From a virus, in IMG/VR virus record IMGVR_UViG_3300042864_000549, positions 1 to 28,861 of that record: a DNA stretch of 28,861 bases, one strand, 5' to 3'. Below the pieces are notes generated by a model. The model was not told where the DNA came from. It was given only the letters and a program-made list of their open reading frames with translations, and searched no databases. Both the position numbers and the translations under genes were made by a program. This document shows positions 1,109-21,223 of this stretch, piece after piece. Numbering within the stretch: position 1 is the first letter of the stretch; every line of letters starts with the position of its first letter.

Positions 1109-1660
1109 ATGAATTTAGACTTGATGATTATTGATAATTTCTATACAAATCCCGATGCTGTTAGAGCCTATGCTTTGACCCAAGAGTTTGATGTAACTGG
1201 CAACTATCCTGGCAAACGAACTCAATCTTTTCTGACAGACGATGTTAAAGCATGCATTCAGTACTGGATGAATTTTGCTGGTAACATTACCAACTGGTAC
1301 GAAGACTCTGGTTATACCGGAGCTTTTCAGTATGCCACAGCCCAAGATCGTACCTGGATTCATTGTGATCATACGAGCATGTGGGCAGGAGTATGTTACT
1401 TGACTCCTGATGCACCGCTATCGAGTGGTACTGCTATGTATCGGCACAAGGAATCAGGAGAATGGCGATCGCATGAAAACCTTTACGAAGGATACGACTA
1501 CACCAAATGGGATAAAGTAGATTCGATAGGCAACAAGTATAATCGACTTATTCTTTATCGTGGAGATCTCTTCCATGCTAGCCTCGACTACTTCGGCAAA
1601 AACTTATATGACGGGAGATTGTTCCAGACATTCTTCTTTGATACGGAGAGATTCTCATGA
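1109..1660 (+). CDS. Putative 2OG-Fe(II) oxygenase, DUF6445-like
   Basis: 183 residues. It has the double-stranded beta-helix signature of 2-oxoglutarate/Fe(II) oxygenases: H85-x-D87 (in TWIHCDHT), a distal H156 (LFHASLD) and R170 (GRLFQTFFF) placed to bind 2OG. The opening LMIIDNFYTNPDAVRAYAL is typical of the DUF6445 family as I remember it. A GAGG about 12 bases upstream of the ATG is a modest ribosome-binding site. It is the first gene after the late promoter at 1070-1077 and overlaps the next gene by four bases (ATGA). Substrate is unknown; a protein hydroxylase acting on phage fibres is only inference from context. Confidence 0.65.
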   Translation: MNLDLMIIDNFYTNPDAVRAYALTQEFDVTGNYPGKRTQSFLTDDVKACIQYWMNFAGNITNWYEDSGYTGAFQYATAQDRTWIHCDHTSMWAGVCYLTPDAPLSSGTAMYRHKESGEWRSHENLYEGYDYTKWDKVDSIGNKYNRLILYRGDLFHASLDYFGKNLYDGRLFQTFFFDTERFS

Positions 1661-2409
1661 AGATATGTAAGGTAATATGGTCGACGAATCGACTCGAATA
1701 TTTGATTCCTACTCTAAAATCACAGCGTGATATGCTAAACTTTGAAGGATGTGAAGTCGAAGGCATCTTTATTGATGATATGCCAAAAGGTCGCCATGAT
1801 GGTACGATGTTCGAGCTAGCCAAGAATTTTGGCTTTACTGAGATCTTCCTACATCAGCAGAATATGGGTTTACCATACGTATGGAATCGAACCTTCGAAT
1901 TGTTGAGAGAACGAGATTATGATTACGTTTATCTATCTGAAGATGATGTGACGTTCAACTGTCCGATTCGAATGCTCGACATGACTCAGATTCTTCACGA
2001 CTATCAAAAAGTTTCTCAGGTATGTTTAACAAGGCAAAAATGGTATGATTTTGAAGAGGAAACACAGGCTTATGAAACAGACATTACATTCGGAAAATAT
2101 CGCGGCGAACTTTCTGAGGCATATTTTTGGAGTTTGGCGAGTATTTTTCCTCGCGCGATAGTAGATCTTCCACATGCCGAATCAGTAGGTGAGAAAAACT
2201 TAAGCGAGTATGTTGTAGCGAAATCATTGCAGCAACTTGGCATGCAAACTTGTAAGCTCAAGACCGAAGAAGGCCATAACATCGTAAATCATATCGGCGA
2301 ATATAGCATCGGTAAGAGGGCAGAACCAGGAGATCCTCGTTATGAAGATTTCGCGTCATATGATCCTGAAACGAAATATAGCTCAAAGCACGGAACGAAG
2401 TGGGTTTAA
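1657..2409 (+). CDS. GT-A-like glycosyltransferase
   Basis: 250 residues. The N-terminal part looks like a nucleotide-sugar-binding GT-A (family-2-like) domain: an opening strand KICKVIWSTNR, FIDD (38-41), a QNMGLPYVWNR segment (68-78), and YVYLSEDDV with the E95-D96-D97 metal/sugar-nucleotide motif. The C-terminal third is a less typical helical/acceptor region ending in a basic tail. No signal peptide or membrane segment, so it should act in the infected-cell cytoplasm. It is translationally coupled to the upstream oxygenase by ATGA and precedes two repeat-fibre genes. Donor and acceptor are not deducible; virion protein or cell-surface glycan are both possible. Confidence 0.7.
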   Translation: MKICKVIWSTNRLEYLIPTLKSQRDMLNFEGCEVEGIFIDDMPKGRHDGTMFELAKNFGFTEIFLHQQNMGLPYVWNRTFELLRERDYDYVYLSEDDVTFNCPIRMLDMTQILHDYQKVSQVCLTRQKWYDFEEETQAYETDITFGKYRGELSEAYFWSLASIFPRAIVDLPHAESVGEKNLSEYVVAKSLQQLGMQTCKLKTEEGHNIVNHIGEYSIGKRAEPGDPRYEDFASYDPETKYSSKHGTKWV

Positions 2410-2441
2410 TCAAAATTGAATTATACTGGCGTCATAATTAT

Positions 2442-2449
2442 TATAAATA
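2442..2449 (+). promoter_or_regulatory. T4-type late promoter for tail-fibre gene 2481-4349
   Basis: Exact TATAAATA in the 71-base gap after the glycosyltransferase, 31 bases before the ATG at 2481, the same spacing as at the 1070-1077 promoter. An AGGGAA ribosome-binding site lies between promoter and start. Confidence 0.65.
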
Positions 2450-2480
2450 TAAGTAAATAATCTGTGGGATAGGGAACCAG

Positions 2481-4349
2481 ATGACACCAAATAACTTTCG
2501 CGTTAAAAACGGGTTAACCGTAGCGAATGGCGTAACAATATCGGCAGGCAACGTCGTAATTACGAGCGGTCAACTCGTTATTGGTGCGACTGCGATTAAC
2601 GCTACCTCACTGAGTGACGGGGCCAATAACGCATATTCCAATGCAGTCACTTATACCGATACAAAGATTGGAACTGCCAACACAGCAATGGTAGCCAATG
2701 CCGGTGCAGCTTATACGAATGCCATTACAATTGCTGCGAATGCTAGCAATCTGACTTCTGGTACAGTGGCATTTGCTCGATTGCCTTCATTGTTTGTTGG
2801 AACAACGACGATTCAGTCGACGAGTGCCGCGCAAGCAGTCAGTGGCATTACAACTCTTGCTGCTGGTAACACAACGATCACTGGCGATATCACAGTTTCT
2901 GGTAACCTCACTATCAATGGTACCACAACGAATATAAATTCTACAAATCTTCTTGTAGAAGATAAAAATATTATACTTGGTGATGTGACTACTCCAAGTG
3001 ATGTCACTGCCGATGGCGGTGGTATTACTCTGAAAGGTGGTACCGATAAGACATTTAACTGGGTTGATGCAACTGATAGTTGGACATCTTCCGAACATTT
3101 AGATATTGCAACTGGTAAAACCTATAGGATCAATGGTACTACTATTGCTAACTCTACGGCTTTAGGTACTGGAATTCTTGCATCGTCTCTTACCTCTGTA
3201 GGCACTTTAAGTTCTCTTACACTCGGCGGAGCTTTATCTGCGAATGGTGGAGTAGGAACTGCCGGTCAGGTATTAGCATCGAATGGAGCGACTGGTTCTC
3301 CATATTGGGTAACAGCAGTCGGTCCTCAAGGTGCTCAAGGCGCAACTGGTGCAACTGGTGCTCAAGGTGCTACTGGTGCAACCGGTGCTCAAGGTGCTAC
3401 TGGCGCACAAGGTGTTGCTGGCGCGCAAGGTGCTCAAGGACTTCAAGGCGCTCAAGGTGCTACTGGTGCAACTGGTGCTCAAGGTGCTACTGGTGCAACC
3501 GGTGCTCAAGGTGCTACTGGCGCACAAGGTGTTGCTGGTCCTATAGGCGGATCCAATACACAAGTCATATTTAATGATAGTAACGTAGCGAATGGTTCTG
3601 CTAACTTTACATTTAATAAAACAACTAGTGCAGTAACTTTTGGTGGACCGGTATCAGGTATCACGACTCTTGCAGCCGGTAATACTACGATCACTGGAAA
3701 TATTAGCGTTACAAGCGTTGGAAGTTTTGATCGAGTGACTACTGCTAATAATGGCAGTGGAACAAATATTGGCATCGGTGATGATGCGTGGTTCGGAGAT
3801 GTTAACATCGCTGACACTGTTCGTATTATGGGACAACAAAGTGCCAATAACGGACACATTATCTTTGGTAATGCTGATAATAGTGTAAAACTTGGTAGAA
3901 CTGGAACTGGTGCTCTTACATGGAACGGAGCATTTAGTGTTACTGGTGGTCTAACTACGCTGTCAGCGAACCTTGTGATGGCCAATAACAACATTACTCG
4001 CCCAATCTTAACAGGTTATACAGAACACGAAGTGGCTAATACTGCTGCGACTGGATCATATAGCCTTGATTGCGGTGCTGCTAACTTCTTCGATTTGACT
4101 CTCACTGGAAATATTACAATCGCTCCGACCAATATACCTCCGGCGACTCGCGTATGGTCTGGTTCTATTGCAGCCAAACAAGATGCAACAGGAGGTCGTA
4201 CGATCACATGGCCGGCAGGTACTAAATATGCAGGAGGAGTTGTGCCTCCTGCGACAACGACTGCAAACGCGCTCGATATCTGGTCGATTATGACGTACGA
4301 CGGAGGCACGACTTATATTGTTTCATTGTCAGTGAAAGCGGCGGCATAA
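2481..4349 (+). CDS. Modular tail fibre with collagen-like Gly-X-Y domain
   Basis: 622 residues, a structural fibre rather than an enzyme. Order: N-terminal head ([14 protein letters not shown]); an Ala/Asn/Thr-rich beta region; a fibre module around residues 130-215 with [23 protein letters not shown] and [13 protein letters not shown]; a [15 protein letters not shown] connector; a collagen-like stretch (about 281-356, [10 protein letters not shown] repeats); then a C-terminal module with [13 protein letters not shown] and [11 protein letters not shown]. The C-terminal module and connector recur in the minus-strand fibre at 19428-21173, so the two are partial paralogues. Gly-X-Y triplets here carry few prolines. 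The ATG is preceded by AGGGAA and a late promoter. It likely forms a trimeric tail fibre; receptor unknown. Confidence 0.8.
3321..3549 (+). repeat. Collagen-like Gly-X-Y coding repeats with internal duplication
   Basis: Nine-base multiples encoding GAQ, GAT and GVA triplets. A block of about ten triplets ([30 protein letters not shown]) occurs twice, offset by 117 bases, with nearly identical DNA. This indicates a recent tandem duplication inside the collagen domain. Confidence 0.85.
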
Positions 4350-4352
4350 CTT

Positions 4353-6044
4353 ATGGGTATTGGTGGCGGTTCTAAATTTACACTCGAAAAAACCTGGCGA
4401 GCAAGCGGTGTCGGTACGACGAAGTTTAATAGCCCAGGAAATATCGCAATTCCTTATGGTAGGAATAGTATTCTTGTTTCAGGACAAGGTGGATCTGGAA
4501 CTGCTTTAATTCCTGGGCCTGGAGCTAACTTTAATATTGTCGCCGGAAATGCAACCGGTACATTTAATATTATTCCCGGGACCGGAAGCACATTCAACGT
4601 AATTCCTGGACCTGGAGCTAACTTTAATATTGTACCAGGAAATGCAACCGGTACATTTAATATTATTCCCGGGACCGGAAGCACATTTAATATTATTCCT
4701 GGACCTGGAGCTAACTTTAATATTGTACCAGGAAATGCAACCGGTACATTTAACAAAGTTCCTGGGACCGGAGCTAACTTTAATATCATCTTTCCACAAA
4801 CAGGCACATTTAATATTCTCTTTCCGGGAACAGGCACATTTAACATTGTTGCAGGAACTGGAACAGGCACATTTAATAAAGTTCCTGGAACTGGAAGCAC
4901 ATTCAACGTAATTCCTGGGCCTGGAGCTAACTTTAACATTGTTGCAGGAACTGGAACCGGTACATTCAATAAAGTTGCAGGAACTGGCACAGGTACATTC
5001 AATAAAGTTGCAGGAACTGGAGCTGGCTTTAACGTTGTTGCGGGAACTGGAGCTGGCTTTAACGTTGTTGCGGGAACTGGAGCTGGCTTTAACGTTGTTG
5101 CGGGAACTGGAGCTGGCTTTAACGTTGTTGCAGGAACTGGAACTGGTAGTTATAATACTAGCGGTGGAAATGCAGTCTCTTATAATGCTCCTAGTATTAA
5201 ATATGGCCCAGGATTTGTGAATGCATTTAACGCTATAAGTAATGGTCCTCAAAACTTCAATGCGCCTTCAAATGGTCCACAAAACTTCAATGCGCCTTCA
5301 AATGGCCCACAAAACTTCAATGCGCCTTCAAACGGCCCTCAAAACTTCAATGCGCCTTCAAACGGCCCTCAAAACTTCAATGCACCTACAAATGGGCCAC
5401 AAAACTTCAATGCTCCAACGAATGGCCCACAGAATTTTAATGCACCTACAAATGGGCCACAAAACTTCAATGCTCCAACGAATGGCCCACAGAATTTTAA
5501 TGCTCCAACGAATGGCCCACAAAACTTTAATGCGCCAACGAACGGGCCTCAAAACTTTAATGTCGCGAATGGTCCTCAGAACTTCAATGTCGCGAATGGT
5601 CCTCAGAACTTTAATGCGCCAACGAACGGGCCTCAAAACTTTAATCCTGCAACTAACGGGCCTCAGAACTTCAATGCGCCTACAAATGGTCCTCAGAACT
5701 TTAATGCGCCAACGACCGGGCCTCAAAACTTTAATGCGCCAACGACCGGGCCTCAAAACTTCAATGCGCCTTCAAATGGCCCACAAAACTTCAATGCACC
5801 TTCGAATGGTCCACAAAACTTTAATCCTGCTACCAATGGTCCGCAGAATTTTAATGCTCCAACTCCGGCGGTTCCAGGAAATGCAGCAAATGCGCTCGGT
5901 ATTACTTTCCCCGGATCAAATGCCGGTGGTACGCCTGCGCCGGTGATAAATAATCAGACGGCAAGCTACTATTCTTTTCCGGATGGCCAATCACATTCGG
6001 TAACTGTAGCGCCCGGAGGATATATAGATATTACTATTGAATAA
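4353..6044 (+). CDS. Decapeptide-repeat (xFN) fibre or adhesin
   Basis: 563 residues. Residues 1-50 resemble the lead-in of phage glycine-rich tail domains (KFNSPGNIAIPYGRNSILVSG, then GQGG). Residues about 54-280 hold some 22 units of the type GTGAGFNVVA, with Phe-Asn (or Tyr-Asn) every 10 or 11 residues. Residues 297-504 hold 21 units of NGPQNFNAPT with the same F-N register. The last 60 residues form a cap (GNAANALGITFPG ... HSVTVAPGGYIDITIE). A regular beta-solenoid or stacked-turn fibre is the natural reading, but that is inference. Start is three bases after the upstream fibre stop with little ribosome-binding site, suggesting coupling. The head and cap resemble those of the protein at 16050-19412. 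Confidence 0.7.
   Translation: MGIGGGSKFTLEKTWRASGVGTTKFNSPGNIAIPYGRNSILVSGQGGSGTALIPGPGANFNIVAGNATGTFNIIPGTGSTFNVIPGPGANFNIVPGNATGTFNIIPGTGSTFNIIPGPGANFNIVPGNATGTFNKVPGTGANFNIIFPQTGTFNILFPGTGTFNIVAGTGTGTFNKVPGTGSTFNVIPGPGANFNIVAGTGTGTFNKVAGTGTGTFNKVAGTGAGFNVVAGTGAGFNVVAGTGAGFNVVAGTGAGFNVVAGTGTGSYNTSGGNAVSYNAPSIKYGPGFVNAFNAISNGPQNFNAPSNGPQNFNAPSNGPQNFNAPSNGPQNFNAPSNGPQNFNAPTNGPQNFNAPTNGPQNFNAPTNGPQNFNAPTNGPQNFNAPTNGPQNFNAPTNGPQNFNVANGPQNFNVANGPQNFNAPTNGPQNFNPATNGPQNFNAPTNGPQNFNAPTTGPQNFNAPTTGPQNFNAPSNGPQNFNAPSNGPQNFNPATNGPQNFNAPTPAVPGNAANALGITFPGSNAGGTPAPVINNQTASYYSFPDGQSHSVTVAPGGYIDITIE
4512..5186 (+). repeat. First decapeptide array (GTGxxFNxxx), about 22 units
   Basis: Units of 30 or 33 bases encoding variations of PGTGSTFNVI, AGNATGTFNI and AGTGAGFNVV. 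Four consecutive copies at about 5019-5138 are almost identical DNA, consistent with recent unit expansion. Confidence 0.85.
5241..5864 (+). repeat. Second decapeptide array (NGPQNFNAPT), 21 units
   Basis: Twenty-one in-frame units fill 624 bases: nineteen of 10 residues and two of 9 (ending NVA). Variants end in APS, APT, VA or PAT, and two units begin with T instead of N. A two-unit higher-order repeat (60 bases) is visible at about 5391-5510. Prolines occur at fixed positions 3 and 9. Confidence 0.9.
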
Positions 6045-6065
6045 GTGACTTGACGAGGATTTACT

Positions 6066-6659
6066 ATGCCATATATTATTCCTAAATATGGGAAACAATT
6101 GAATTGCTTTGCAGTATGGTCGGGAGGATTTACTCCTGAAGAAGTCGATAAAATTATCGATCTCGAAAAACTCCAAGAGTTTGAAAAAGGAAAAGTTGGG
6201 CTAGAGAAGAATGCCGCAGCTCCGGCTGAAACGCGAGATTCTGATATCTCGTGGATACATCATGATCAACACAGTGATTGGCTATTTCAGAGAATGTCAG
6301 GAATCGTTTCTGTCGTGAACTACGACAACTTTATGTATGATATCGAAGGCGTCGAAGCTTTTCAATATACAAAGTACGGACCAAATCAACATTATACATG
6401 GCATTGGGATGTTGAATTTGGCTGGCAGAAATATATAAGAAAGATCTCAGCATCTCTGCTTCTTTCAGATCCGAGTGAATATGAAGGTGGAGAGTTAGAG
6501 ATCGTAAACAACGGAAACTTTGAAGACAAAGTTTCGTTTAAACCGAATAAAGGTGATATCGTATTCTTCGCTTCATGGATGCCACATCGAGTGAAGCCAA
6601 TCACTTCTGGTTTTCGTAAGAGTCTTGTAGCATGGGTAATGGGTGAGAGAGAATGTTGA
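6066..6659 (+). CDS. 2OG-Fe(II) oxygenase, prolyl-4-hydroxylase-like
   Basis: 197 residues, the length of small phage P4H-type oxygenases (2OG-FeII_Oxy_3-like). Catalytic residues are all visible: H113-W-D115 in HYTWHWD, distal H174 in MPHRVKPI, and R184 in SGFRKSLVAW for 2OG binding. LLLSDPSEYEGGELEI (131-146) is the typical strand pair of this family. The expected reaction is Fe(II)- and O2-dependent hydroxylation with conversion of 2OG to succinate. A GAGGA ribosome-binding site lies six bases before the ATG. It follows the decapeptide-repeat adhesin directly and overlaps the next gene by seven bases. It is a paralogue of the protein at 14174-14770. Proline as substrate is likely from family, not proven. 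Confidence 0.87.
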   Translation: MPYIIPKYGKQLNCFAVWSGGFTPEEVDKIIDLEKLQEFEKGKVGLEKNAAAPAETRDSDISWIHHDQHSDWLFQRMSGIVSVVNYDNFMYDIEGVEAFQYTKYGPNQHYTWHWDVEFGWQKYIRKISASLLLSDPSEYEGGELEIVNNGNFEDKVSFKPNKGDIVFFASWMPHRVKPITSGFRKSLVAWVMGEREC

Positions 6660-7390
6660 GTTGGAATCCTTTTAAAAAGAAACCTATTATTGAGTTTTAT
6701 TGCCATCGCGATGATGTTGAGGCATTACCTCAGCCAAAGCCTGCGGCAAAATATATGCCAGAATGGTATAAAAGAATTCCTCCACTGATTACAGATGGAA
6801 GAGATGATCGTGATTGGTCAGGATCTCATAGCTTTACTGCAAAAAAATGCATGCCGATGATCGACGCAATGTCATTAGGATATGTCATTCCTCTTATCGG
6901 CGACTTGACAGTCAGATCAAATCACGACTGCAGTACAATTGAAGTCACGTCTTCTCCACAGATCAACGTATGTGAGTTTCATGACATTCGACAACTTGGA
7001 GAAAGATCTGCTCCTGGATTTCCTGCACCTCCTTTGAAGTTTGTCAATCCATGGATTGTAAAGACTGCTCCGGGTTGGTCGACTCTTTTCATAGCTCCGA
7101 TTAATAACTTTGAAAGCCATTTTACATGTCTGTCAGGATTAGTTGATACAGATACATATCCAAAAGAAGTCAATTTTCCTGCAATCTGGCACACTCCAAA
7201 TGCCGACGTGCTTTTACTTGCTGGTACACCTTTAGTCATTGCCATTCCAATTAAGCGTGATGCTGTTCCATCAAAGCCCAATATTCGAAACATGAAAGAA
7301 GATGAACATCACTTAATTAATATCATATCAAAGATGCAAAACACTCGAAGAAGCGTATATACAAAAGAATTGAGAGTACCAAGAAAATGA
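6653..7390 (+). CDS. DUF6065-like protein, paralogue 1
   Basis: 245 residues, function unknown. After a short basic N-terminus come KPAAKYMPEWYKRIP (33-47), CMPMIDAMSLGYVIPLI (about 64-80), PGWSTLFIAP, CLSGLVDTD and a C-terminal AGTPLVIAIPIKRD. The same ordered motifs occur in the genes at 7387 and 14770, so the window holds three paralogues. The pattern resembles the uncharacterised DUF6065 family as I recall it; I infer a beta-sandwich fold from the regular short strands. No catalytic metal triad is obvious. It overlaps both neighbours (7 and 4 bases) within the oxygenase/glycosyltransferase cluster. Two of the three paralogues sit directly beside a P4H-like gene, suggesting a shared process. 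Confidence 0.5.
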   Translation: MLSWNPFKKKPIIEFYCHRDDVEALPQPKPAAKYMPEWYKRIPPLITDGRDDRDWSGSHSFTAKKCMPMIDAMSLGYVIPLIGDLTVRSNHDCSTIEVTSSPQINVCEFHDIRQLGERSAPGFPAPPLKFVNPWIVKTAPGWSTLFIAPINNFESHFTCLSGLVDTDTYPKEVNFPAIWHTPNADVLLLAGTPLVIAIPIKRDAVPSKPNIRNMKEDEHHLINIISKMQNTRRSVYTKELRVPRK

Positions 7391-8127
7391 AAAACTTGTT
7401 TTCTTTATTAAAACCAAAGAAAGATATTGAATTCGTAGATACTAAGAAGTTATCTTATCATAACTTTTCTGTTGAACGAGCGATTGATGTTCCAACAAAT
7501 ACTCGCAAGGTTCAACAAGACAAGTATGGCAAGCATCTGATGCCATACTGTCCGGGAATTTTAGACTATGCTCAATTTGGCTATATCATTCCGGCGTGGG
7601 TAGACATTCATATTATGGCAAATAAAGCTGGTACTTCTTGGTATCTTGGAGACAGAGGACCGAGAGGAGATCGCGGATTTGACAATGGCGTAAAGATGGA
7701 TGAAAAATTTGTAGAAGGCGCATTTACTCCAATTGGAATTGATCCTACAGCAATCTTATTTCCATCTCCTTGGAAAATTTTTACTCAAAAAAACATTAGC
7801 GCATTGTTAATGCCTGCATTTTATCATTCTACTTTTCTTGAAGATCTATACATAACTCCTGGTTTGGTAGACTATAAGAGTTTCCATATTACAAACTTCA
7901 TTTGCATGCCGAAAAGAGAATGTAACGTTCACATTAAAGCGGGAGAACCTTTGTTGCACGTCATTCCTTTCCTCAATAAAGATATTACTGCTTCTGTTGG
8001 CCCAGCTTCAGATGAGATGATAGATAAAACTATGAATCTAATTCCCGGAGATGATAAGCAATACTATCGAAAGTATATGGGAATAAAAAAGAAATTTAAT
8101 ATGCAAAAAGAAGAGAATAAACAATGA
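7387..8127 (+). CDS. DUF6065-like protein, paralogue 2 (divergent)
   Basis: 246 residues, starting at the ATGA overlap with the previous gene. Shared motifs with the other two paralogues: HLMPYCPGILDYAQFGYIIPAW (about 49-70), a central strand region ending LLMPAFYHS, ITPGLVDYKSFHITNF, and KAGEPLLHVIPFLNKD. The N-terminal WYK motif is missing and a charged loop (GDRGPRGDRGF) replaces the middle, so it is the most diverged copy. Function unknown. It overlaps the following PF11397-type glycosyltransferase by four bases. An accessory or substrate-handling role for the modifying enzymes is speculation. Confidence 0.45.
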   Translation: MKNLFSLLKPKKDIEFVDTKKLSYHNFSVERAIDVPTNTRKVQQDKYGKHLMPYCPGILDYAQFGYIIPAWVDIHIMANKAGTSWYLGDRGPRGDRGFDNGVKMDEKFVEGAFTPIGIDPTAILFPSPWKIFTQKNISALLMPAFYHSTFLEDLYITPGLVDYKSFHITNFICMPKRECNVHIKAGEPLLHVIPFLNKDITASVGPASDEMIDKTMNLIPGDDKQYYRKYMGIKKKFNMQKEENKQ

Positions 8128-12813: not shown

Positions 12814-12831
12814 AATTTCACCGATAATAAT

Positions 12832-13053
12832 TTAGTTAATAGTAATTGTAGAGGTGTCTTTACATATGCTCATAGTACCTTCGCAACAGATATTCCAATC
12901 TTGACCTGTCTTTGCCCCACGGCTTGGAACATTAATGATAACATTTTTACATAGATATTCTTTACCATCTTCGAAAACGCGCCAGACATGATCTTCTGTC
13001 CCGCGATTAGGTTGTCCTCTTGATTGATTGAATCTTATCATAAACTCAGACAT
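12832..13053 (-). CDS. Small conserved phage protein of unknown function
   Basis: 73 residues, beginning MSEFMIRFNQSRGQPNRGT, followed by DHVWRVFEDGKEYL and a C-terminal part with two adjacent cysteines (NICCEGTM). I recall very similar small proteins in T4-like cyanophages, always unannotated. It lies between two HxH-type oxygenase genes in the same direction, one base after the upstream stop. Composition suggests a compact beta protein. The cysteines are not in a known metal motif. Confidence 0.65.
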   Translation of the reverse strand: MSEFMIRFNQSRGQPNRGTEDHVWRVFEDGKEYLCKNVIINVPSRGAKTGQDWNICCEGTMSICKDTSTITIN

Positions 13054-13054
13054 A

Positions 13055-13693
13055 TTAGATTATTTCTGCTGTTGCATCATATACTATAGGTTCAATGTAC
13101 GGACGTGTACCAATGTTCATGTGAATAAATTTGAAAGGTTTGGTTGATGTGTTACGAGTAAAGCTATGCGGTAGCCAGGAATTTGCAAACATTAGTTGAC
13201 CAGGAACTGGCGTAAAATTAATAGACGATGTTGCTGTGGTAATGTTAGAAGAATTATGTTCGTATAGTGGTAACATAAGTTTCATTGGTCGCGGATCATG
13301 AATCACCATTCGCGGAGGATCTTTCGGGCACTCTAAAAAATAAAAAGCAACTAACTGACAGTCGCTGTGATTATGATACTCCATTGATGAATACTTATGG
13401 TGTTCTTGACTCCAACATTCGGTAAGATAAGTCGAAAGTCCATTCATGTTGTATCCTTGATCGCTCAAAAGATTCCATGCTGTGTTTAATGTGTACTGTA
13501 TCAGTGGAAGAAGATCTTCTTCGTTAGACACATCTGCTTGCACGACTGGATATACATCGTTTATTTTTGTTATTTTGCGCGCGGCCCTTAACGCCGCATT
13601 TGATGCTGCTCTTGAGAAATCAAGAAGTTCTGGCTTCATAATACTATAGATAGGTGAGCTAAAATACTGCCACTGATCAAGTATGTCTGTCAT
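13055..13693 (-). CDS. 2OG-Fe(II) oxygenase-like, HxH type, with Lys in place of Arg
   Basis: 212 residues. N-terminus FSSPIYSIMKPELL is typical of PF13759 members. Metal-site candidates are H107-N-H109 (MEYHNHSDCQLVAFYFL) and H176 (SWLPHSFTRN); the strand that normally carries the 2OG-binding Arg reads PFKFIHMNIG, so K188 replaces it. A helical region at 60-95 precedes the core. AAGGA lies upstream of the ATG. A second HxH gene (12205) follows after one small gene, and the two may be distant paralogues. Activity is plausible but the Lys substitution lowers certainty. Confidence 0.62.
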   Translation of the reverse strand: MTDILDQWQYFSSPIYSIMKPELLDFSRAASNAALRAARKITKINDVYPVVQADVSNEEDLLPLIQYTLNTAWNLLSDQGYNMNGLSTYLTECWSQEHHKYSSMEYHNHSDCQLVAFYFLECPKDPPRMVIHDPRPMKLMLPLYEHNSSNITTATSSINFTPVPGQLMFANSWLPHSFTRNTSTKPFKFIHMNIGTRPYIEPIVYDATAEII

Positions 13694-13708
13694 AATAAAA
13701 TCCTTATG

Positions 13709-14167
13709 TTATGTATATTGGGAAAGATCAGCCTCTATCACTGTATCTAAAAACAGTCGGTTTCCAATCTTATTCCAACCACTGTTGACTTGATAAAATA
13801 TATTTAAACCGTTGTTCAAACCATACTGAATAGCCCAACTAAGTATTTCGGCTGTTAGCGGAGCGCCTGCTTCAAGCAGTTGTAAAAAGCTAAGATCAGG
13901 ATTTTCGTGTTGTCTCCAAACCATAATTACGTTTGATTCGTCTGGTTTCATCCACATCGGAATAGTATCAAGACCGAGTGGAAACTTTTCATTTCCTAAC
14001 CATACACAGCTAAACGATTTGCACGGATTCTCAGGTCGTTGTTCATGTATCGAACATCCTTTTGTAGTTACAAAATGACATTTCCTTCCTGGCCAAAATT
14101 GATGGCCAAGAGCTTCTCCAGTTAACCAACCGCAGCACTTCGTGCAACTTCCACATTCTCTTGTCAT
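13709..14167 (-). CDS. CxxCxxCC (YkgJ-like) zinc/iron-binding protein
   Basis: 152 residues. The N-terminus has C5-x2-C8-x2-C11-C12 (ECGSCTKCCGW), followed by C30, C38, C49 and C54 (GRKCHF, GCSIHEQRPENPC, FSCVW). This is the eight-cysteine pattern of the CxxCxxCC family (YkgJ/FliB-related), proposed to bind zinc or iron. The remaining 100 residues are less typical. It sits between two 2OG-Fe(II) oxygenase genes read in the same direction. A link to iron supply or to the redox state of those enzymes is inference. Confidence 0.78.
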   Translation of the reverse strand: MTRECGSCTKCCGWLTGEALGHQFWPGRKCHFVTTKGCSIHEQRPENPCKSFSCVWLGNEKFPLGLDTIPMWMKPDESNVIMVWRQHENPDLSFLQLLEAGAPLTAEILSWAIQYGLNNGLNIFYQVNSGWNKIGNRLFLDTVIEADLSQYT

Positions 14168-14173
14168 ATTATC

Positions 14174-14770
14174 TCACTTAAATTGAGGACCAGCTAACCA
14201 TACTACTAGAGTTTTACGAATGCCTTTTGTCACAGGAGTTACTCTGTGTAAAATAAAGGACGGGAATGCAACTACTAAACCTTTTTGTTTTGTGACTTGA
14301 GTCGGCACGGGTGCATCAAATATCTCAAGATCTCCCCCCTCGTATTCAGAAGGATCAGATAATTGTATTACAAGAGATAATTTGCGAGGCGCATTCGTTG
14401 CATTTCCACCTCTGTCAAGATGCCACGTATAATGATCGTCTTTTCCATCGTATATAGTATACTGAAAGTCCTCTACAAATCCCCATATATCTAGATTGAA
14501 GAATTCACCGTTCAGTTGTCTTGCTATGAAAGCAATTCTATCATATATAAAATTAGTCTCGGGCGTAAGATTTATCCAACCTATTTTAGATGATCTAACT
14601 GCTTCTTCAACTTTACTATCAGGTCCAACACTAGCAGATTTGATCGTGAGACTATCACCAATACTAACTATTTTATCGATCTCTTCTTCAGTAAAACCAT
14701 CACGCCATGATGCAAAAGAAATTTCTGGTATACCTAACGATGGAGAAGGAGCTATTTGATATACTGCCAT
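14174..14770 (-). CDS. 2OG-Fe(II) oxygenase, prolyl-4-hydroxylase-like (paralogue)
   Basis: 198 residues, almost the same length as the plus-strand gene at 6066 and clearly its paralogue. Shared motifs: ASWRDGFTEEEIDKI near residue 20-34, HYTWHLD (H117, D119), SDPSEYEGGDLEIF (138-151), HRVTPVTKGIRKTLVVW (H175, R185). All Fe(II) and 2OG ligands are intact. It overlaps the upstream DUF6065-like gene by one base (TAATG). The gene pair P4H plus DUF6065-like thus occurs twice in the window, on opposite strands, though the order of the two genes relative to transcription is reversed. Hydroxylation of proline in phage fibres is inference. Confidence 0.85.
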   Translation of the reverse strand: MAVYQIAPSPSLGIPEISFASWRDGFTEEEIDKIVSIGDSLTIKSASVGPDSKVEEAVRSSKIGWINLTPETNFIYDRIAFIARQLNGEFFNLDIWGFVEDFQYTIYDGKDDHYTWHLDRGGNATNAPRKLSLVIQLSDPSEYEGGDLEIFDAPVPTQVTKQKGLVVAFPSFILHRVTPVTKGIRKTLVVWLAGPQFK

Positions 14771-15483
14771 TATTTACGCTCCCAAATATTATCTCGATAA
14801 TGGGATTCATGACTTTGAAGCTTTCTACGTGTACCTTTGAGTGCTTTCAGTTCAGTTTCATTGAATGCTCTACATACATTTTTCGAAAACAAAGTATCTC
14901 TTTTAATTGGAATAACCTGCATTAACGGTGTACCAGCAGGTAGAATACCTTTAAAATTGGGTTCGTTCCAAACAAATGGAAAGTTAATAAACTCAAAATA
15001 ACCATCGCAGTCTACCATACCCGAAAAACAAGTAAATCTTGGATCAGGTCTATTTAATGGTGGAACAAACAACAGTGAGTATCCTTTCGGGCAGTTGATT
15101 GCCCACCAGTTCATGAATTTAATTGGAGGTTTTGGTAAATGTGGAGCGGGGCATTTGTCAGATGTTACTTGCCACTGTAAATGATTCTCGATCATTGCTC
15201 TCGGATATTTGCTGTTGTATTCAATGAACGAACAATCTTCATTCGAAGTGATTTCAACATCAGCAACGAGTGGAATAATCCAACCCGTGATCATCGCATC
15301 AAGAAAAGGTGGGCATCTTTTGAGAGTAGATTGATCAAAGCCTACATCCTTCTTCATTGGCAAAGCTTTATACCATTCTGGTATCAGTTTGCGGGCAGGA
15401 TAAGGTTCTGGTATATTTCCTAAATCATCATCATAGCAAAGAAATTCTAGTTTAGGCTCATTCTTTTCAAAAAACGAAAACAT
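14770..15483 (-). CDS. DUF6065-like protein, paralogue 3
   Basis: About 237 residues from the ATG at 15483, which overlaps the upstream TGA by one base. Motifs align with the gene at 6653: PYPARKLIPEWYKALP, CPPFLDAMITGWIIPLVADVEITSNED, KGYSLLFVPPLNRP, CFSGMVDCDGYFEFINFPF and AGTPLMQVIPIKRD. It is closer to paralogue 1 than to paralogue 2. Function unknown. It is paired with a P4H-like oxygenase immediately downstream, as paralogue 1 is paired with one immediately upstream. Confidence 0.5.
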   Translation of the reverse strand: MFSFFEKNEPKLEFLCYDDDLGNIPEPYPARKLIPEWYKALPMKKDVGFDQSTLKRCPPFLDAMITGWIIPLVADVEITSNEDCSFIEYNSKYPRAMIENHLQWQVTSDKCPAPHLPKPPIKFMNWWAINCPKGYSLLFVPPLNRPDPRFTCFSGMVDCDGYFEFINFPFVWNEPNFKGILPAGTPLMQVIPIKRDTLFSKNVCRAFNETELKALKGTRRKLQSHESHYRDNIWERK

Positions 15484-15689
15484 CAATTTTGTCCATTTCC
15501 AGGTTTTTCATAGTGTATTCCACCAGATTCAATAAATTTTTTACATTGCTCGACGTCGCTCGCACCTCTCAGAATATGATCATCATGCAAACTAAAATGT
15601 AAGCTTGAGATCCATATTCTGAGATGTGGTGGAAGTTTGTCATAGCAACGCATTACCAATGCCATTCTTTGTATGTTAACATGTTCCAA
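15483..15689 (-). CDS. Small protein of unknown function
   Basis: About 68 residues if it begins at the TTG at 15689; no in-frame ATG lies upstream and an internal ATG at about 15656 would shorten it by 11 residues. GAG at about nine bases before the TTG is a possible ribosome-binding site. The sequence includes MRCYDKLPPHLRIWISSLHFS and KFIESGGIHYEKPG. Not recognised. It ends by overlapping the next ATG by one base, so it is probably translated as part of the leftward operon. Confidence 0.45.
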   Translation of the reverse strand: MEHVNIQRMALVMRCYDKLPPHLRIWISSLHFSLHDDHILRGASDVEQCKKFIESGGIHYEKPGNGQN

Positions 15690-15717
15690 ATGAATGACTC
15701 TATTATATATATGTAAA

Positions 15718-16023
15718 TTACAGGGCTGCTAGTTCGACTAAGTTGCTCTCTGTGATGGCATCTAAGCCAATCAATGCTTGTTTGACTGCGGTAAAATCGT
15801 CATGTTTTTCATCGTAGATGACAAATGGAAAATCAGTAAATTCTCCAATATCCCATGTATTTAGAGCATTGAATACAGATTCGTATTGACTACTATCGTT
15901 GTATGATAAATGAGTAAACTCAATGTTATTATCCTGTAGCCACTGATAGGCTGCAGCAGAGTCGTTGCCACCTGTCGTAGTCAAACCAGTATAAAGATAA
16001 ACGTCTTTAATTCCTACTAGCAT
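15718..16023 (-). CDS. Small protein, glutaredoxin/thioredoxin-like fold suspected
   Basis: 101 residues. The order of elements is strand (KDVYLYTGL), helix (AAAYQWLQDNNIEF), strand (THLSYN), then TDFPFVIYDE, which looks like the cis-proline strand of glutaredoxins, and a C-terminal helix pair. The usual CxxC is absent: the equivalent position reads TTTGGNDS and the protein has no cysteine, so it cannot be a normal redox enzyme. AAAAGGAAA is a good ribosome-binding site and a late promoter lies at 16094-16101. Fold call is inference. Confidence 0.5.
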   Translation of the reverse strand: MLVGIKDVYLYTGLTTTGGNDSAAAYQWLQDNNIEFTHLSYNDSSQYESVFNALNTWDIGEFTDFPFVIYDEKHDDFTAVKQALIGLDAITESNLVELAAL

Positions 16024-16049
16024 GTATTGTTTCCTTTTTGTTATTTGTG

Positions 16050-19000
16050 CTAAAATGTTACACTCATCGTACCATTAGCGCTGCCTGTTCCAATATTTAT
16101 AGAAACTATTTGATATGGGTATACTTTTACTGATACTGAATTTGTCGTAGTACCAATATTACCAGCGTTTCCTGATGCTCCAGGATTTGATGTGCCGGCT
16201 GTTCCGGCGGTCGCTCCAGTTCCAGCACTACCTGCTGTGCCAGTATTTCCTGCTGCTCCTGCGCCTCCTGGATTTCCAGCCGCACCATTTGTAGCTCCAG
16301 TTCCAGCTGCTCCTGTTGTGCCAGCATTACCAGCAGCTCCGGCACCGCCTGGGTTTCCAGCCGCACCATTTGTAGCTCCAGTTCCTGCATTGCCAGTCGC
16401 TCCAGCATTTCCTGCTGCTCCTGCACCTCCTGGATTTCCAGCTGCACCATTTGTAGCTCCAGTTCCTGCATTGCCAGTCGCTCCGGCATTTCCTGCAGCG
16501 CCGGCATTACCAGGACTTCCTGCTGCTCCTGGATTTGCTCCAGTTCCTGCCGCTCCTGTTGTACCAGCATTTCCGTTGGCTCCTGCACCGCCTGGACTTC
16601 CTGCTGCTCCTGGATTTGCTCCAGTTCCTGCCGCTCCTGTTGTACCAGCGCTTCCTGCAGCGCCGGCATTACCAGGACTTCCTGCTGCTCCAGCGTTTGC
16701 TCCAGTTCCTGCGGCCCCAGTATTTCCAGCACTTCCATTGGCGCCTGCATTACCAGGACTTCCTGCTGCTCCAGCGTTTGCTCCAGTTCCTGCGGCTCCT
16801 GTATTTCCTGCGCTGCCTGGTGTTCCTGCATTACCTGAACCACCGGCAGCGCCCGAAAGAAGTCCTCCATTGCCGCCTGCGCCGCCGTTGCCGTTAGTAG
16901 CACCACTTATGTTGCCTGAATTACCCGCGGTACCAGCATTGCCGGCGCCGCTACCACCTTGCTTTAAAGTCCAACCCGATGCTCCGCCTCCGCCTCCGCC
17001 GCCTCCGCCGCCTCCGCCTACACCAGCGTTGCCAGGAGATCCGGAGTTACCCGCCGTACCACCAGCTCCTCCTGCACCACCGGCGCCATTTGTTCCTGGG
17101 TTACCAGCATTGCCAGTGGCTCCTGGATTCCCAGCATTTCCTCTTGCACCGCCTGCACCACCAGCACCGTTATTTCCTGGATTACCAGCATTGCCAGTGG
17201 CTCCTGGATTACCAGCATTACCAGCAGCACCGCCTGCACCACCAGCACCGTTATTTCCTGGATTGCCGGCATTACCAGTGGCTCCTGGATTACCAGCATT
17301 ACCACCAGCTCCTCCTGCACCACCAGCCCCATTGGTGCCAGGATTGCCTGTTCCTCCAATACCACCAGATGTCCCAGCTGTACCACCAGCACCACCAGTT
17401 CCTGCAGCTCCATTATTACCGGGATTGCCTGTTCCTCCAATACCTCCGGAAGTACCGGCCGATCCTCCGGCGCCGCCTGTACCAGCAGCTCCATTGTTAC
17501 CGGGATTGCCTGTTCCTCCAATACCACCAGATGTCCCAGCTGTACCACCAGCACCGCCAGTTCCTGCAGCCCCATTATTTCCGGGATTGCCTGATCCACC
17601 TGGATTTCCAGAAGTTCCGGCCGAGCCAGCTGCTCCGTTTGTAGCATTTCCTCCAGCCCCACCAGTACCACCGGTTCCACCTGGAAAATTAGCTAAGGAA
17701 CCAAACGTTGAAACGTTGCCTGGGTTTCCACTTGATCCCGGATTTCCGTTTGCTGCGCCAGTCCCAGCATTACCAGCAGCTCCGGCACCGCCTGGATTTC
17801 CTGCTGCTCCTGGATTAGCTCCAGTGCCAGCATTACCATTTGCTCCAGTATTTCCTGCTGCTCCGGCATTTCCAGGGCTCCCTGCTGCCCCTGGATTAGC
17901 TCCAGTGCCGGCATTACCATTTGCACCTGGATTTCCTGCTGCGCCGGCATTACCTGGATTGCCAGTAGATCCAGCGGTTGCCCCTGTTCCTGCATTACCA
18001 TTTGCTCCAGTATTTCCTGCTGCGCCTGCATTACCTGGATTTCCTGCTGCTCCAGCAGTTGCCCCTGTACCTGCGGCCCCTGTTGTGCCGGCATTACCAT
18101 TAGCACCGGCACCGCCAGGACTTCCTGCTGCTCCGGCGTTTGCTCCAGTTCCAGCCGCCCCTGTTGTGCCGGCATTACCATTGGCACCAGCTCCACCAGG
18201 ACTTCCTGCTGCTCCAGCGTTTGCTCCAGTTCCTGCTGCTCCAGTATTTCCAGCATTTCCATTGGCCCCAGCTCCACCGGGACTTCCTGCTGCTCCAGCA
18301 GTTGCCCCTGATCCTGCGGCTCCAGTATTTCCAGCACTTCCATTGGCACCCGCACCACCTGCACTCCCTGAATTACCAGTCACTCCGCTACCGCCGCCTC
18401 CGCCGCCGCCACCGCCGCCGCCGCAAACGCACCCCCCAAGATTTGCGCTTCCACCAAAGCCACCATTTCCTCCGCCAGGAGAGCCTCCGGCGCCGCCGGG
18501 GGCAGAACAAGGCGCAAATGGGGTGCCAAAACAACCGCAGCCACCGCCCGGACTACCACCGCTACCGGCTCCGCCACCGCAAGGTCGGGCTGAACCTTGT
18601 CCGCCGCCTCCTCCCGTACCTGCGCTACCGCCAGTGCCACCAGCACCGCCGGCACCATTATTTCCTGGATTTCCAGAGTTTCCTGTGGCACCTGGATTCC
18701 CAGCATTTCCTCTTGCACCGCCAGCACCGCCGGCACCATTGGTACCAGGATTACCAGAGTTTCCTGTGGCACCTGGATTCCCAGCATTACCAGCAGCACC
18801 GCCAGCACCGCCGGCGCCATTTGTTCCTGGGTTACCAGCATTGCCAGTGGCACCTGGATTCCCAGCATTACCAGCAGCACCGCCTGCACCACCGGCACCA
18901 TTAGTACCGGGATTGCCGGAGTTTCCTGTCGCTCCAGCATTTCCAGCAGTACCACCAGCACCGCCAGCTCCGCCAGCACCATTCGTACCTGCATTGCCAG

Positions 19001-19412
19001 TGGCACCTGGATTCCCAGCATTCCCTGCAGCACCTCCGGCTCCTCCTGGGCCGCCAGCACCGTTTGTGCCAGCATTTCCTGATGCGCCGGGATTTCCAGA
19101 TGTTCCAGCTGTACCACCAGCACCGCCAGCTCCGCCGGCCCCGTTTGTGCCAGCATTTCCTGATGCGCCAGGATTGCCAGATGTCCCAGCTGTACCACCA
19201 GCACCACCAGTTCCTGCGGCCCCATTATTTCCAGGATTACCAGCATTGCCAGCAGTACCAGGATTGCCTGCATTACCAGCGTTTCCATTGCCGCCACGAC
19301 CAGATATATCTATAGAATATACGCCTGCAGGAACGACGAATGTTGCGGGGGCATTGAATACTTGTGTGGCTGGAGCAGCCTTACCTGAAGCTCTAAATAC
19401 ATTTAATGGCAT
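16050..19412 (-). CDS. 1120-residue glycine-rich, triplet-repeat fibre or adhesin
   Basis: Residues 1-38 are a lead-in (VFNAPATFVVPAGVYSIDISG) typical of phage glycine-rich tail domains. Then follows a two-fold internal architecture: block A (about 39-265, GNPGATGNAG and NGAGGAGG triplets); a Gly/Cys-rich cap (about 266-345, all six cysteines); block B (346-555, GANGNAGTTGAAGTGA type); a spacer (FGSLANFPGG); block A' (600-790); a second Gly-rich cap (about 795-870, with poly-Gly and GWTLKQGG); block B' (870-1085); and a C-terminal beta cap (SVSVKVYPYQIVSINIG). Gly is at every third residue almost throughout, with dozens of X-Pro-Gly. Collagen triple helix or polyglycine-II bundle are both possible. 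AAGAAGG precedes the ATG. GC content is far above the neighbours. Confidence 0.75.
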   Translation of the reverse strand: MPLNVFRASGKAAPATQVFNAPATFVVPAGVYSIDISGRGGNGNAGNAGNPGTAGNAGNPGNNGAAGTGGAGGTAGTSGNPGASGNAGTNGAGGAGGAGGTAGTSGNPGASGNAGTNGAGGPGGAGGAAGNAGNPGATGNAGTNGAGGAGGAGGTAGNAGATGNSGNPGTNGAGGAGGAAGNAGNPGATGNAGNPGTNGAGGAGGAAGNAGNPGATGNSGNPGTNGAGGAGGARGNAGNPGATGNSGNPGNNGAGGAGGTGGSAGTGGGGGQGSARPCGGGAGSGGSPGGGCGCFGTPFAPCSAPGGAGGSPGGGNGGFGGSANLGGCVCGGGGGGGGGGGSGVTGNSGSAGGAGANGSAGNTGAAGSGATAGAAGSPGGAGANGNAGNTGAAGTGANAGAAGSPGGAGANGNAGTTGAAGTGANAGAAGSPGGAGANGNAGTTGAAGTGATAGAAGNPGNAGAAGNTGANGNAGTGATAGSTGNPGNAGAAGNPGANGNAGTGANPGAAGSPGNAGAAGNTGANGNAGTGANPGAAGNPGGAGAAGNAGTGAANGNPGSSGNPGNVSTFGSLANFPGGTGGTGGAGGNATNGAAGSAGTSGNPGGSGNPGNNGAAGTGGAGGTAGTSGGIGGTGNPGNNGAAGTGGAGGSAGTSGGIGGTGNPGNNGAAGTGGAGGTAGTSGGIGGTGNPGTNGAGGAGGAGGNAGNPGATGNAGNPGNNGAGGAGGAAGNAGNPGATGNAGNPGNNGAGGAGGARGNAGNPGATGNAGNPGTNGAGGAGGAGGTAGNSGSPGNAGVGGGGGGGGGGGGASGWTLKQGGSGAGNAGTAGNSGNISGATNGNGGAGGNGGLLSGAAGGSGNAGTPGSAGNTGAAGTGANAGAAGSPGNAGANGSAGNTGAAGTGANAGAAGSPGNAGAAGSAGTTGAAGTGANPGAAGSPGGAGANGNAGTTGAAGTGANPGAAGSPGNAGAAGNAGATGNAGTGATNGAAGNPGGAGAAGNAGATGNAGTGATNGAAGNPGGAGAAGNAGTTGAAGTGATNGAAGNPGGAGAAGNTGTAGSAGTGATAGTAGTSNPGASGNAGNIGTTTNSVSVKVYPYQIVSINIGTGSANGTMSVTF
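16094..16101 (-). promoter_or_regulatory. T4-type late promoter inside the end of the glycine-rich gene
   Basis: Minus strand reads TATAAATA, about 71 bases upstream of the start at 16023. It lies within the last codons of the 1120-residue protein, so it gives the accessory group 16023-12205 its own late start. Confidence 0.55.
16150..19300 (-). repeat. Nine-base-periodic Gly-X-Y coding repeats with A-cap-B duplicated
   Basis: Triplets GNP, GAT, GNA, GTN, GAG, GAA and relatives recur with near-identical DNA modules of 45-60 bases (for example around 17100-17330 and 18660-18900). Two glycine-rich breaks at about 18375-18615 and 16860-17040 divide it into four blocks. Low complexity makes exact unit borders arbitrary. 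Confidence 0.85.
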
Positions 19413-19427
19413 CGTATAACCTTCTTA

Positions 19428-21173: not shown

Positions 21174-21223
21174 TCTCAACCTCTATATAGAGCAACGAAG
21201 CGGTTATGTAACCCCTAATATTC

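What the first reader, a model, noticed from the sequence alone, without database searches (positions are those of the whole stretch)
1109..19412. Candidate fibre-modification system: six 2OG oxygenases, two glycosyltransferases and two sulfotransferase-like genes packed around collagen-like and repeat fibres
Seen: 2OG-Fe(II)-type motifs at 1109, 6066, 11585, 12205, 13055 and 14174; glycosyltransferases at 1657 and 8124; sulfotransferase-like genes at 9143 and 10933; Gly-X-Y or other repeat fibres at 2481, 4353, 16050, 19428 and 24806. Known: prolyl-4-hydroxylases modify proline in X-Pro-Gly of collagen, and hydroxylated residues can then be glycosylated. Inference: the phage hydroxylates, then glycosylates or sulfates, its own fibres, stabilising them or varying the surface the host sees. 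It is unusual to have this many modifying genes with their likely substrates in one locus.
Basis: partly seen in the sequence, partly recalled or inferred. Interest (0 to 1): 0.88.

Follow-up and report, generated by a model that had tools for sequence, protein, structure and literature searches.

The report
Phage fibres with dedicated prolyl-hydroxylase-like enzymes
A freshwater virus of bacteria carries two gene sets in which an enzyme resembling those that harden our collagen sits beside its own repetitive fibre-like protein, and related viruses keep the pairing, so these viruses probably hydroxylate, and in one set glycosylate, parts of their own tails.

Summary
The observation largely holds: five Pfam-supported 2OG oxygenases plus a DUF6445 protein with HxD...H...R, one strong and one weak glycosyltransferase, one supported and one unsupported sulfotransferase, and repeat proteins at the named places. 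Comparison sharpens it into two cassettes. A (4353-9146): a repeat protein rich in [YF]N, P and G, a P4H-like oxygenase, two DUF6065-family proteins and a PF11397 GlcNAc-transferase. In a scan seeded on the oxygenase alone, 52 of 52 distinct closer homologues have DUF6065 next door and 47 of 52 the repeat-protein family directly upstream; 0 of 12 remoter ones have either. B (12205-19412): a second P4H-like enzyme and a Gly-X-Y protein with X-Pro-Gly prolines. Y-position proline dominates near that enzyme (11 of 13 clusters) and not elsewhere (0 of 10; p = 7e-5). DUF6065 is predicted to have a dUTPase fold. Best reading: the enzymes hydroxylate the neighbouring repeat proteins; in A GlcNAc is then added, as on protist Skp1. 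Linkage is shown; the chemistry is inferred.

The parts
4353..6044 (+). repB: repeat protein of 563 aa (FNxxPG and NGPQNFNAPT repeats) between conserved N- and C-terminal ends; proposed substrate A
6066..6659 (+). P4Ha: P4H/PKHD-like 2OG oxygenase (H113, D115, H174, R184)
6653..7390 (+). DUF6065a; predicted dUTPase-like fold
7387..8127 (+). DUF6065b (same family by phrog_7084)
8124..9146 (+). GnT: PF11397 GlcNAc-transferase, invariant D94-S-H96
2481..4349 (+). fibA: tail-fibre protein with a short Gly-X-Y run (26 triplets, two Pro, both in X)
9143..9679 (+). possible P-loop sulfotransferase-like protein (by eye), unsupported by any library searched
9660..10385 (+). fatty-acid-desaturase-like protein with histidine boxes
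10382..10936 (+). unknown, conserved in the cassette A tail of close relatives
10933..11637 (+). sulfotransferase (Sulfotransfer_1)
11585..12208 (+). 2OG oxygenase c (PF13640, just above cut-off)
1109..1660 (+). DUF6445 protein with 2OG-like HxD...H...R pattern
1657..2409 (+). weak GT2-like glycosyltransferase
16050..19412 (-). glyR: 1120 aa Gly-X-Y protein, prolines mostly in (N/S)-Pro-Gly; N-terminus related to repB; proposed substrate B
15718..16023 (-). small protein recurring beside glyR-type genes (called grx here by eye only)
15483..15689 (-). small protein (DUF6525 below cut-off) between glyR and DUF6065c in several relatives
14770..15486 (-). DUF6065c (phrog_7084)
14174..14770 (-). 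P4Hf: second P4H/PKHD-like 2OG oxygenase
13709..14167 (-). CxxCxxCC protein (phrog_9155; YkgJ-like by eye)
13055..13693 (-). 2OG oxygenase e (PF13759)
12832..13053 (-). small protein in the tail of cassette B, kept in several relatives
12205..12813 (-). 2OG oxygenase d (PF13759)
19428..21179 (-). fibC: collagen-like tail fibre (one Pro, in X, in its Gly-X-Y run); probably not a substrate
24806..26530 (-). fibE: collagen-like tail fibre with gp53-like C-terminus (Pro 16 in X, 1 in Y); probably not a substrate

Best explanation
The window holds two self-modification cassettes of a T4-like phage. In cassette A the P4H-like oxygenase at 6066 hydroxylates prolines (possibly other residues) of the repeat protein at 4353 inside the infected cell, and the PF11397 glycosyltransferase at 8124 then adds GlcNAc to the new hydroxyl, as in the cytoplasmic Skp1 pathway of protists. 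In cassette B the second P4H-like oxygenase at 14174 hydroxylates X-Pro-Gly sites of the Gly-X-Y protein at 16050. The repeat proteins are fibre or adhesin parts made with the neighbouring tail fibres. DUF6065 is a constant further component with a dUTPase-like predicted fold and an unknown job (nucleotide handling or scaffolding). Shown here: gene content, conserved linkage, proline placement, predicted fold. Inferred: substrate, chemistry, virion location, purpose (stiffening or masking a fast-changing surface).
For: Linkage: the scan seeded on the oxygenase only (best 80 of at least 538 relatives kept) was analysed in 79 of its 80 loci, 64 distinct proteins. Of 52 with 185 bits or more, 52 have DUF6065 within 900 bp downstream, 47 the repB family within 100 bp upstream and 37 a GnT in the locus; of 12 below 185 bits none has any of the three. 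The DUF6065-seeded scan (best 80 of 494 kept) agrees: 32 of 35 distinct P4Ha-type genes in L085-L125. The 56 distinct close P4H proteins form 24 clusters at 70% identity, so these are not only near-copies. The repeats differ almost completely between lineages while the ends and neighbours stay. Substrate signature: Pro in Y exceeds X in 24 of 27 distinct Gly-X-Y proteins within 2.6 kb upstream of a P4Hf-type gene, against 1 of 78 others, and that one lies 617 bp from a P4Hf; by clusters 11 of 13 against 0 of 10. repB cores are 8-32% Pro (median 11.4%, 71 proteins) against 4.5% in P4H and 3.7% in GnT. Enzymes: the P4Ha profile matches PiuC/PKHD structures (1e-14) and P4Hs 5c5t (1e-9) and 2jig (1e-7); H-x-D, distal H and R are kept in 83 of 88 (77 by regex, 6 by reading the 11 regex failures). 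GnT: PF11397 2.5e-24. Skp1 precedent: passages of PMC3515798.
Against: The nearest solved relatives of P4Ha and P4Hf are PiuC/PKHD proteins, not proven prolyl hydroxylases. No GnT is seen in 15 of the 52 loci (some are short). [YF]N density, not Pro content, tracks GnT presence (6.4 against 3.1 per 100 residues, 18 and 12 clusters, p = 1.8e-4; Pro p = 0.21), so the modified residue in cassette A may not be Pro; relatedness was not controlled. The DUF6065 enzymes themselves are 8.3% Pro, so repB's excess over all neighbours is modest at its low end. There is no proteomic evidence, and virion location is by gene neighbourhood only. Five first-copy P4Ha proteins have lost the distal His. The 185-bit split was chosen after seeing the scores, the profile was built from DUF6065-linked genes, and several of the 12 low-scoring loci are short. 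All scans kept only the best 80 loci. Two of 13 clusters near P4Hf go the other way (the ordinary collagen-like fibres, which include L355-L357, and L186), and 7 of 33 P4Hf loci have no glyR-type gene upstream.
Confidence: 0.6

Rival explanations
1. The enzymes act on the neighbouring repeat protein, but on another residue: the oxygenase hydroxylates Asn or an aromatic residue of the [YF]N motif, and GnT adds GlcNAc there or to Thr/Ser.
For: [YF]N occurs 2016 times in 71 repB cores against a shuffled mean of 723; its density is higher where GnT is present; closest structures are PiuC-type; the PF11397/GT60 group also includes Thr-specific enzymes (recalled).
Against: Pro of glyR-type proteins stands in X-Pro-Gly beside P4Hf, which points to Pro at least in cassette B; [YF]N is followed by Pro within six residues in 76% of cases against 53% in shuffles.
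Confidence: 0.2
2. Cargo genes: the oxygenases, transferases and desaturase modify host lipids, surface sugars or small molecules, and only share a variable region with the fibre genes.
For: 2OG genes of this superfamily are common in T4-like phages (349 phage records match P4Ha) and the remoter ones examined lack repeat neighbours (0 of 12; HTVC008M and S-SCSM1); a desaturase-like and a sulfotransferase gene sit in the same run; HTVC008M also has tandem 2OG genes beside gp13.
Against: One P4H subfamily keeps the repeat-protein family as immediate upstream neighbour in 47 of 52 cases, and Pro placement depends on the neighbouring enzyme.
Confidence: 0.13
3. One reading: the collagen-like fibres (2481, 19428, 24806) are the hydroxylated substrates.
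For: They lie in the same region and match Pfam Collagen.
Against: Pro in their Gly-X-Y runs is 19 in X and 1 in Y; in relatives 2310 X against 24 Y; known collagen P4Hs act on the Y position (recalled).
Confidence: 0.05

Closest known systems
Skp1 prolyl hydroxylation and GlcNAc pathway of Dictyostelium/Toxoplasma (PhyA, Gnt1)
   Same: cytoplasmic P4H-type 2OG oxygenase followed by sugars on the hydroxyproline (passages of PMC3515798); that PF11397 is the family of its GlcNAc-transferase is recalled
   Different: here encoded together in phages beside repetitive fibre-like proteins with tens of candidate sites; no later sugar-adding enzymes identified
PBCV-1 prolyl 4-hydroxylase (Eriksson 1999, seen only as a reference in PMC9301287)
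   Same: viral P4H; the P4Ha profile matches P4H structure 5c5t at 1e-9 (that this is the PBCV-1 enzyme is recalled)
   Different: virus of algae; no fixed substrate neighbour or DUF6065 known to me
Mimivirus collagen-modifying enzymes (search listing with start of abstract only, PMC9546862)
   Same: virus-encoded collagens and collagen-modifying enzymes
   Different: lysine-directed hydroxylation and glucosylation; eukaryotic virus
Mycobacteriophages proposed to glycosylate their virions (search listing with start of abstract only, PMC11256854)
   Same: phage-encoded glycosyltransferases thought to act on a capsid protein
   Different: no hydroxylation step mentioned there
dUTPase / DUF6065 (PF19541)
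   Same: predicted DUF6065a fold matches dUTPases (Z about 10)
   Different: no dUTPase sequence-family hit; linked to P4H-like genes here
Plant extensins / hydroxyproline-rich glycoproteins
   Same: Pro-rich repeats; Extensin_1 matches repB weakly (0.004, 17.4 bits against a cut-off of 105)
   Different: analogy only

Membership tests
Fe(II)/2OG oxygenase superfamily (P4Ha, P4Hf) | family profile match above cut-off | tested here: met
   PF13640 64.6 and 56.4 bits against cut-off 27
Fe(II)/2OG oxygenase superfamily (P4Ha, P4Hf) | HxD...H iron triad and 2OG-binding basic residue | tested here: met
   H113, D115, H174, R184 of P4Ha align with P4Hf; 83 of 88 distinct homologues keep them, five first-copy proteins lack the distal His
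Prolyl 4-hydroxylase | sequence relation to proven P4Hs | tested here: inconclusive
   P4H structures at 1e-9 to 1e-4, but PiuC/PKHD closer at 1e-14
Prolyl 4-hydroxylase | acts on X-Pro-Gly | not testable with these tools
   only indirect: Y-position Pro beside P4Hf
PF11397 GlcNAc-transferase (Skp1 Gnt1 type) | profile match above cut-off | tested here: met
   86.8 bits against 21
PF11397 GlcNAc-transferase (Skp1 Gnt1 type) | metal-binding DxD/DxH motif | tested here: met
   D94-S-H96 invariant in 25 sequences; that DxH is the motif of this group is recalled
PF11397 GlcNAc-transferase (Skp1 Gnt1 type) | GlcNAc transfer to hydroxyproline | not testable with these tools
   needs biochemistry
dUTPase | dUTPase fold | tested here: met
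   AF2 pLDDT 91.9; the 50 VIA rows shown are dUTPases, Z 9.5-10.3; Foldseek best 4.5e-4, the only one under 0.001
dUTPase | dUTPase sequence family match | tested here: not met
   Pfam gives only DUF6065 (6653) or nothing (7387, 14770) up to E 1
dUTPase | nucleotide hydrolysis | not testable with these tools
   needs biochemistry
Collagen-like (PF01391) | collagen repeat profile match, glyR | tested here: met
   74.8 bits against 27.2
Collagen-like (PF01391) | collagen repeat profile match, repB | tested here: not met
   no Gly-X-Y run and no Collagen hit at E 0.01
Sulfotransferase | profile match, 10933 | tested here: met
   27.7 bits against 22
Sulfotransferase | profile match, 9143 | tested here: not met
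   no hit in Pfam to E 1, PHROGs to 0.01, NCBIfam to 0.1, nor PDB by profile to 0.1

The most novel reading that the evidence does not exclude
Tailed phages make hydroxyproline-rich glycoproteins: a two-step hydroxylate-then-GlcNAc cassette, with a dUTPase-fold DUF6065 pair as a constant further part, is bound to one family of hypervariable extensin-like repeat fibres, and a sister cassette hydroxylates X-Pro-Gly of a collagen-like protein. It would be a bacterial-virus counterpart of both the Skp1 pathway and collagen maturation.
Probability: 0.4. Interest if true: 0.9.

Novelty: new variant of a known kind. Interest (0 to 1): 0.76.

Why it matters
2OG oxygenase genes are widespread in T4-like phages (349 phage records match P4Ha), to my knowledge without a proven substrate; one paper says that how viruses use prolyl 4-hydroxylase 'remains cryptic' (PMC9301287, passage). 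Here the genome itself names candidate substrates and, for cassette B, the likely residue context, so the question can be tested by mass spectrometry on one co-expressed pair. If true it adds hydroxylation and hydroxyl-linked sugars to what phages do to their own surface, on a protein whose repeats change very fast.

Tried and rejected
Considered and dropped: the collagen-like fibres as main substrates (Pro in X); a common substrate for all six oxygenases (no evidence for 1109, 11585, 12205, 13055); DUF6065 as another oxygenase (the fold search gave dUTPases; in the viral library the first rows are other uncharacterised phage proteins, then dUTPases from 1.7e-5). Led nowhere: isolates carrying the cassette (GnT finds only three remote hits, in Xanthomonas phage XacN1 and Stenotrophomonas phages CM1 and RAS14; repB finds only a repeat protein in three Caulobacter phages); cellular genomes (one short MAG contig); PDB search for GnT, DUF6445 and 9143 (no useful hit); fold of repB (mean pLDDT 48, Foldseek best 0.26; only the ends, about residues 21-50 and 511-563, are confident). 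Paper searches joining phage with prolyl hydroxylase or hydroxyproline and fibres, collagen or virions, cyanophage 2OG oxygenase with tail fiber and DUF6065 listed nothing that by title or abstract start describes this system; of these papers I looked only at passages of PMC9301287 and PMC9004378. The library lacks most subscription journals.

Limits of the counts: the scans kept only the best 80 loci each. One search examined 79 of the 80 loci (L086 was left out, being counted) and one protein per distinct sequence. Nine of the 27 proteins near P4Hf are variants of the window's own gene; one search repeats the test by clusters, there counting P4Hf within 2.6 kb on either side. One search left out loci without a full-length repB or, if no GnT was seen, with under 3.2 kb downstream. 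The output was cut, so part of those proteins was not seen. The scan was used only as part of the pooled loci.
Full report
What is there. The window is a 28,861-base virus record from a T4-like phage: the neck protein gp13 lies at 280-1023 (phrog_211; best match among isolates Stenotrophomonas phage DLP6, 68%). Library searches support five 2OG oxygenases by Pfam and a sixth by motif, a strong PF11397 and a weak GT2 glycosyltransferase, and one of two sulfotransferases. Of 44 loci found with GnT, 21 repeat the window's genes at 99-100% identity as far as they reach.

Cassette A. On the plus strand, fibA (2481), repB (4353), P4Ha (6066), DUF6065a (6653), DUF6065b (7387) and GnT (8124) follow each other. 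In the other 23 loci (74-95% identity in GnT) the run from repB to GnT keeps its order as far as each contig reaches, while repB is only 54-79% alike and differs in repeat number and motif. In 41 more distant loci found with DUF6065 (49-60% identity; the scan kept the best 80 of 494), 32 of 35 distinct P4Ha-type genes have a repB-family gene within 100 bp upstream; in two more it lies 0.6 and 1.4 kb away and in one downstream.

An independent seed. A scan with the oxygenase alignment alone (best 80 kept) was analysed in 79 loci with 64 distinct proteins. At 185 bits or more, 52 of 52 have DUF6065 within 900 bp downstream (49 have two), 47 of 52 have the repB family within 100 bp upstream, 49 anywhere upstream, and 37 have a GnT. 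Of the other three, one is cut by the contig end (L263), one has a YN-repeat protein that the profile missed but which is visible by eye (L256), and one has it only downstream (L272). Below 185 bits, 0 of 12 have any of these; several of those loci are short. Four homologues in isolate, single-cell or large-phage records (126-154 bits) have none in the 12.5 kb examined either. The cut was drawn after seeing the scores, and the profile was built from DUF6065-linked genes. The 56 distinct close proteins fall into 24 clusters at 70% identity and 15 at 60%.

The repB family. Its members share an N-terminal stretch (TTFNxPGN..IPYGR..VSGRGGxGN) and a C-terminal one (LGVxFPGG...YPxxVPxGGxIxVK). Between them lie repeats that differ almost completely between lineages (NYNPLVPG, ASYNTVPGTTNPT, TNYNVAYPIANQP, NPPNPGSYTPG, output partly cut). 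In 71 distinct full-length members the core is 8-32% Pro (median 11.4%; P4H 4.5%, GnT 3.7%, but DUF6065 8.3%), [YF]N occurs 2016 times against 723 in shuffles, and 76% of these are followed by Pro within six residues against 53%. Where GnT is present [YF]N is denser (median 6.4 against 3.1 per 100, 18 and 12 clusters, p = 1.8e-4), while Pro content does not differ (p = 0.21); relatedness was not controlled. AlphaFold2 gives confident structure only at the two ends, about residues 21-50 and 511-563.

Cassette B. On the minus strand glyR (16050) is followed by two small genes, DUF6065c (14770), P4Hf (14174), a CxxCxxCC protein and two PF13759 oxygenases with a small gene between them. The glyR N-terminus matches the repB N-terminal profile (27.5 bits; the C-terminus does not match). 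A scan with P4Hf gave 80 loci; in L339-L371 (33 loci, mostly diverged) a Gly-X-Y protein with more PG than GP lies upstream in 22, its tail is visible at the contig edge in two (L344, L364), two are cut (L360, L362), and seven have none (L355-L359, L369, L371). Its prolines stand in X-Pro-Gly, in most cases chiefly Asn-Pro-Gly. Among 27 distinct Gly-X-Y proteins within 2.6 kb upstream of a P4Hf-type gene, 24 have more Pro in Y than in X (830 Y, 241 X); among 78 others 1 does (the 75 not upstream of any P4H: 5823 X, 100 Y), and that one lies 617 bp from a P4Hf. Nine of the 27 are variants of the window's gene; by clusters it is 11 of 13 against 0 of 10 (Fisher p = 6.7e-5). The two exceptions near P4Hf are the large cluster of ordinary collagen-like fibres (to which L355-L357 belong by their distance) and L186. 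Animal collagen P4Hs hydroxylate exactly the Y position (recalled).

Enzymes and mechanism. The P4Ha profile matches PiuC/PKHD hydroxylases best (1e-14) and prolyl 4-hydroxylases next (1e-9 to 1e-4). GnT belongs to PF11397, whose known member, as I recall, puts GlcNAc on hydroxyproline of Skp1; hydroxylation followed by glycosylation in that pathway is described in PMC3515798 (passages). I therefore propose hydroxylation of repB by P4Ha followed by GlcNAc addition by GnT, and hydroxylation of glyR by P4Hf. Substrate choice rests on linkage and proline placement; the chemistry is inference. The modified residue in cassette A is less certain than in B because [YF]N rather than Pro tracks GnT.

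DUF6065. The predicted structure of the 6653 protein is confident (pLDDT 91.9); the 50 structures listed by the aligner are dUTPases (Z 9.5-10.3), and Foldseek's best E-value is 4.5e-4. No sequence-level dUTPase match exists. By eye GLVDTDxY...N and AGTPLV..IP recall dUTPase motifs III and IV (recalled motifs), but this was not tested. Outside the cassette the family sits beside thymidylate synthase in the haloarchaeal virus HRTV-2 and beside tryptophan halogenases in cyanophage Syn9. Its role here is open: UDP handling for GnT is one guess, a trimeric scaffold another.

The ordinary collagen-like fibres put Pro in X (19 X, 1 Y in the window; 2310 X against 24 Y in L085-L125, the Y sum being my addition of the rows). 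Sulfation is supported by one enzyme only. The four other oxygenases and the desaturase-like gene remain without a substrate.

Noticed in passing
L292, L295, L300, L334 (glyR copies): glyR of near-identical contigs is 1120, 1147, 1093 or 1039 aa long: multiples of 27 aa apart, suggesting in-frame repeat gain and loss between strains.
   Followed up: no
window 9660-10385: Fatty-acid-desaturase-like protein (profile to acyl-CoA desaturase 4ymk 0.0018; NCBIfam DesA 3.5e-5, far below its cut-off) inside the cassette A run.
   Followed up: partly
L116, L120, L121, L203, L230: A first P4Ha copy has lost the distal iron-binding His (MPSR/MPAR for MPHR); in L116, L120 and L121 it still has a repB-family gene within 30 bp upstream.
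   Followed up: partly
L005, L007: DUF6065 outside the cassette: beside thymidylate synthase in Halorubrum virus HRTV-2 and beside two tryptophan halogenases in cyanophage Syn9.
   Followed up: no
L130: Pelagibacter phage HTVC008M has four tandem annotated 2OG genes beside gp13 and a tryptophan halogenase nearby.
   Followed up: no
window 15718-16023: A 101-aa protein has relatives in 20 of the 33 P4Hf loci L339-L371; it looks thioredoxin-like by eye but lacks CxxC.
   Followed up: no
window 13709-14167: CxxCxxCC protein (phrog_9155), possibly metal-binding, between oxygenases.
   Followed up: no
window 12205-12813 and 13055-13693: Both PF13759 oxygenases show HxH where the others show HxD (seen by eye).
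   Followed up: no
L105 and L256: A sulfotransferase-like gene (by eye) stands between the repeat protein and P4Ha.
   Followed up: no
window 16192-19419 plus strand: A 1075-codon open frame lies antisense to glyR; probably a by-product of the GC-rich repeats.
   Followed up: no
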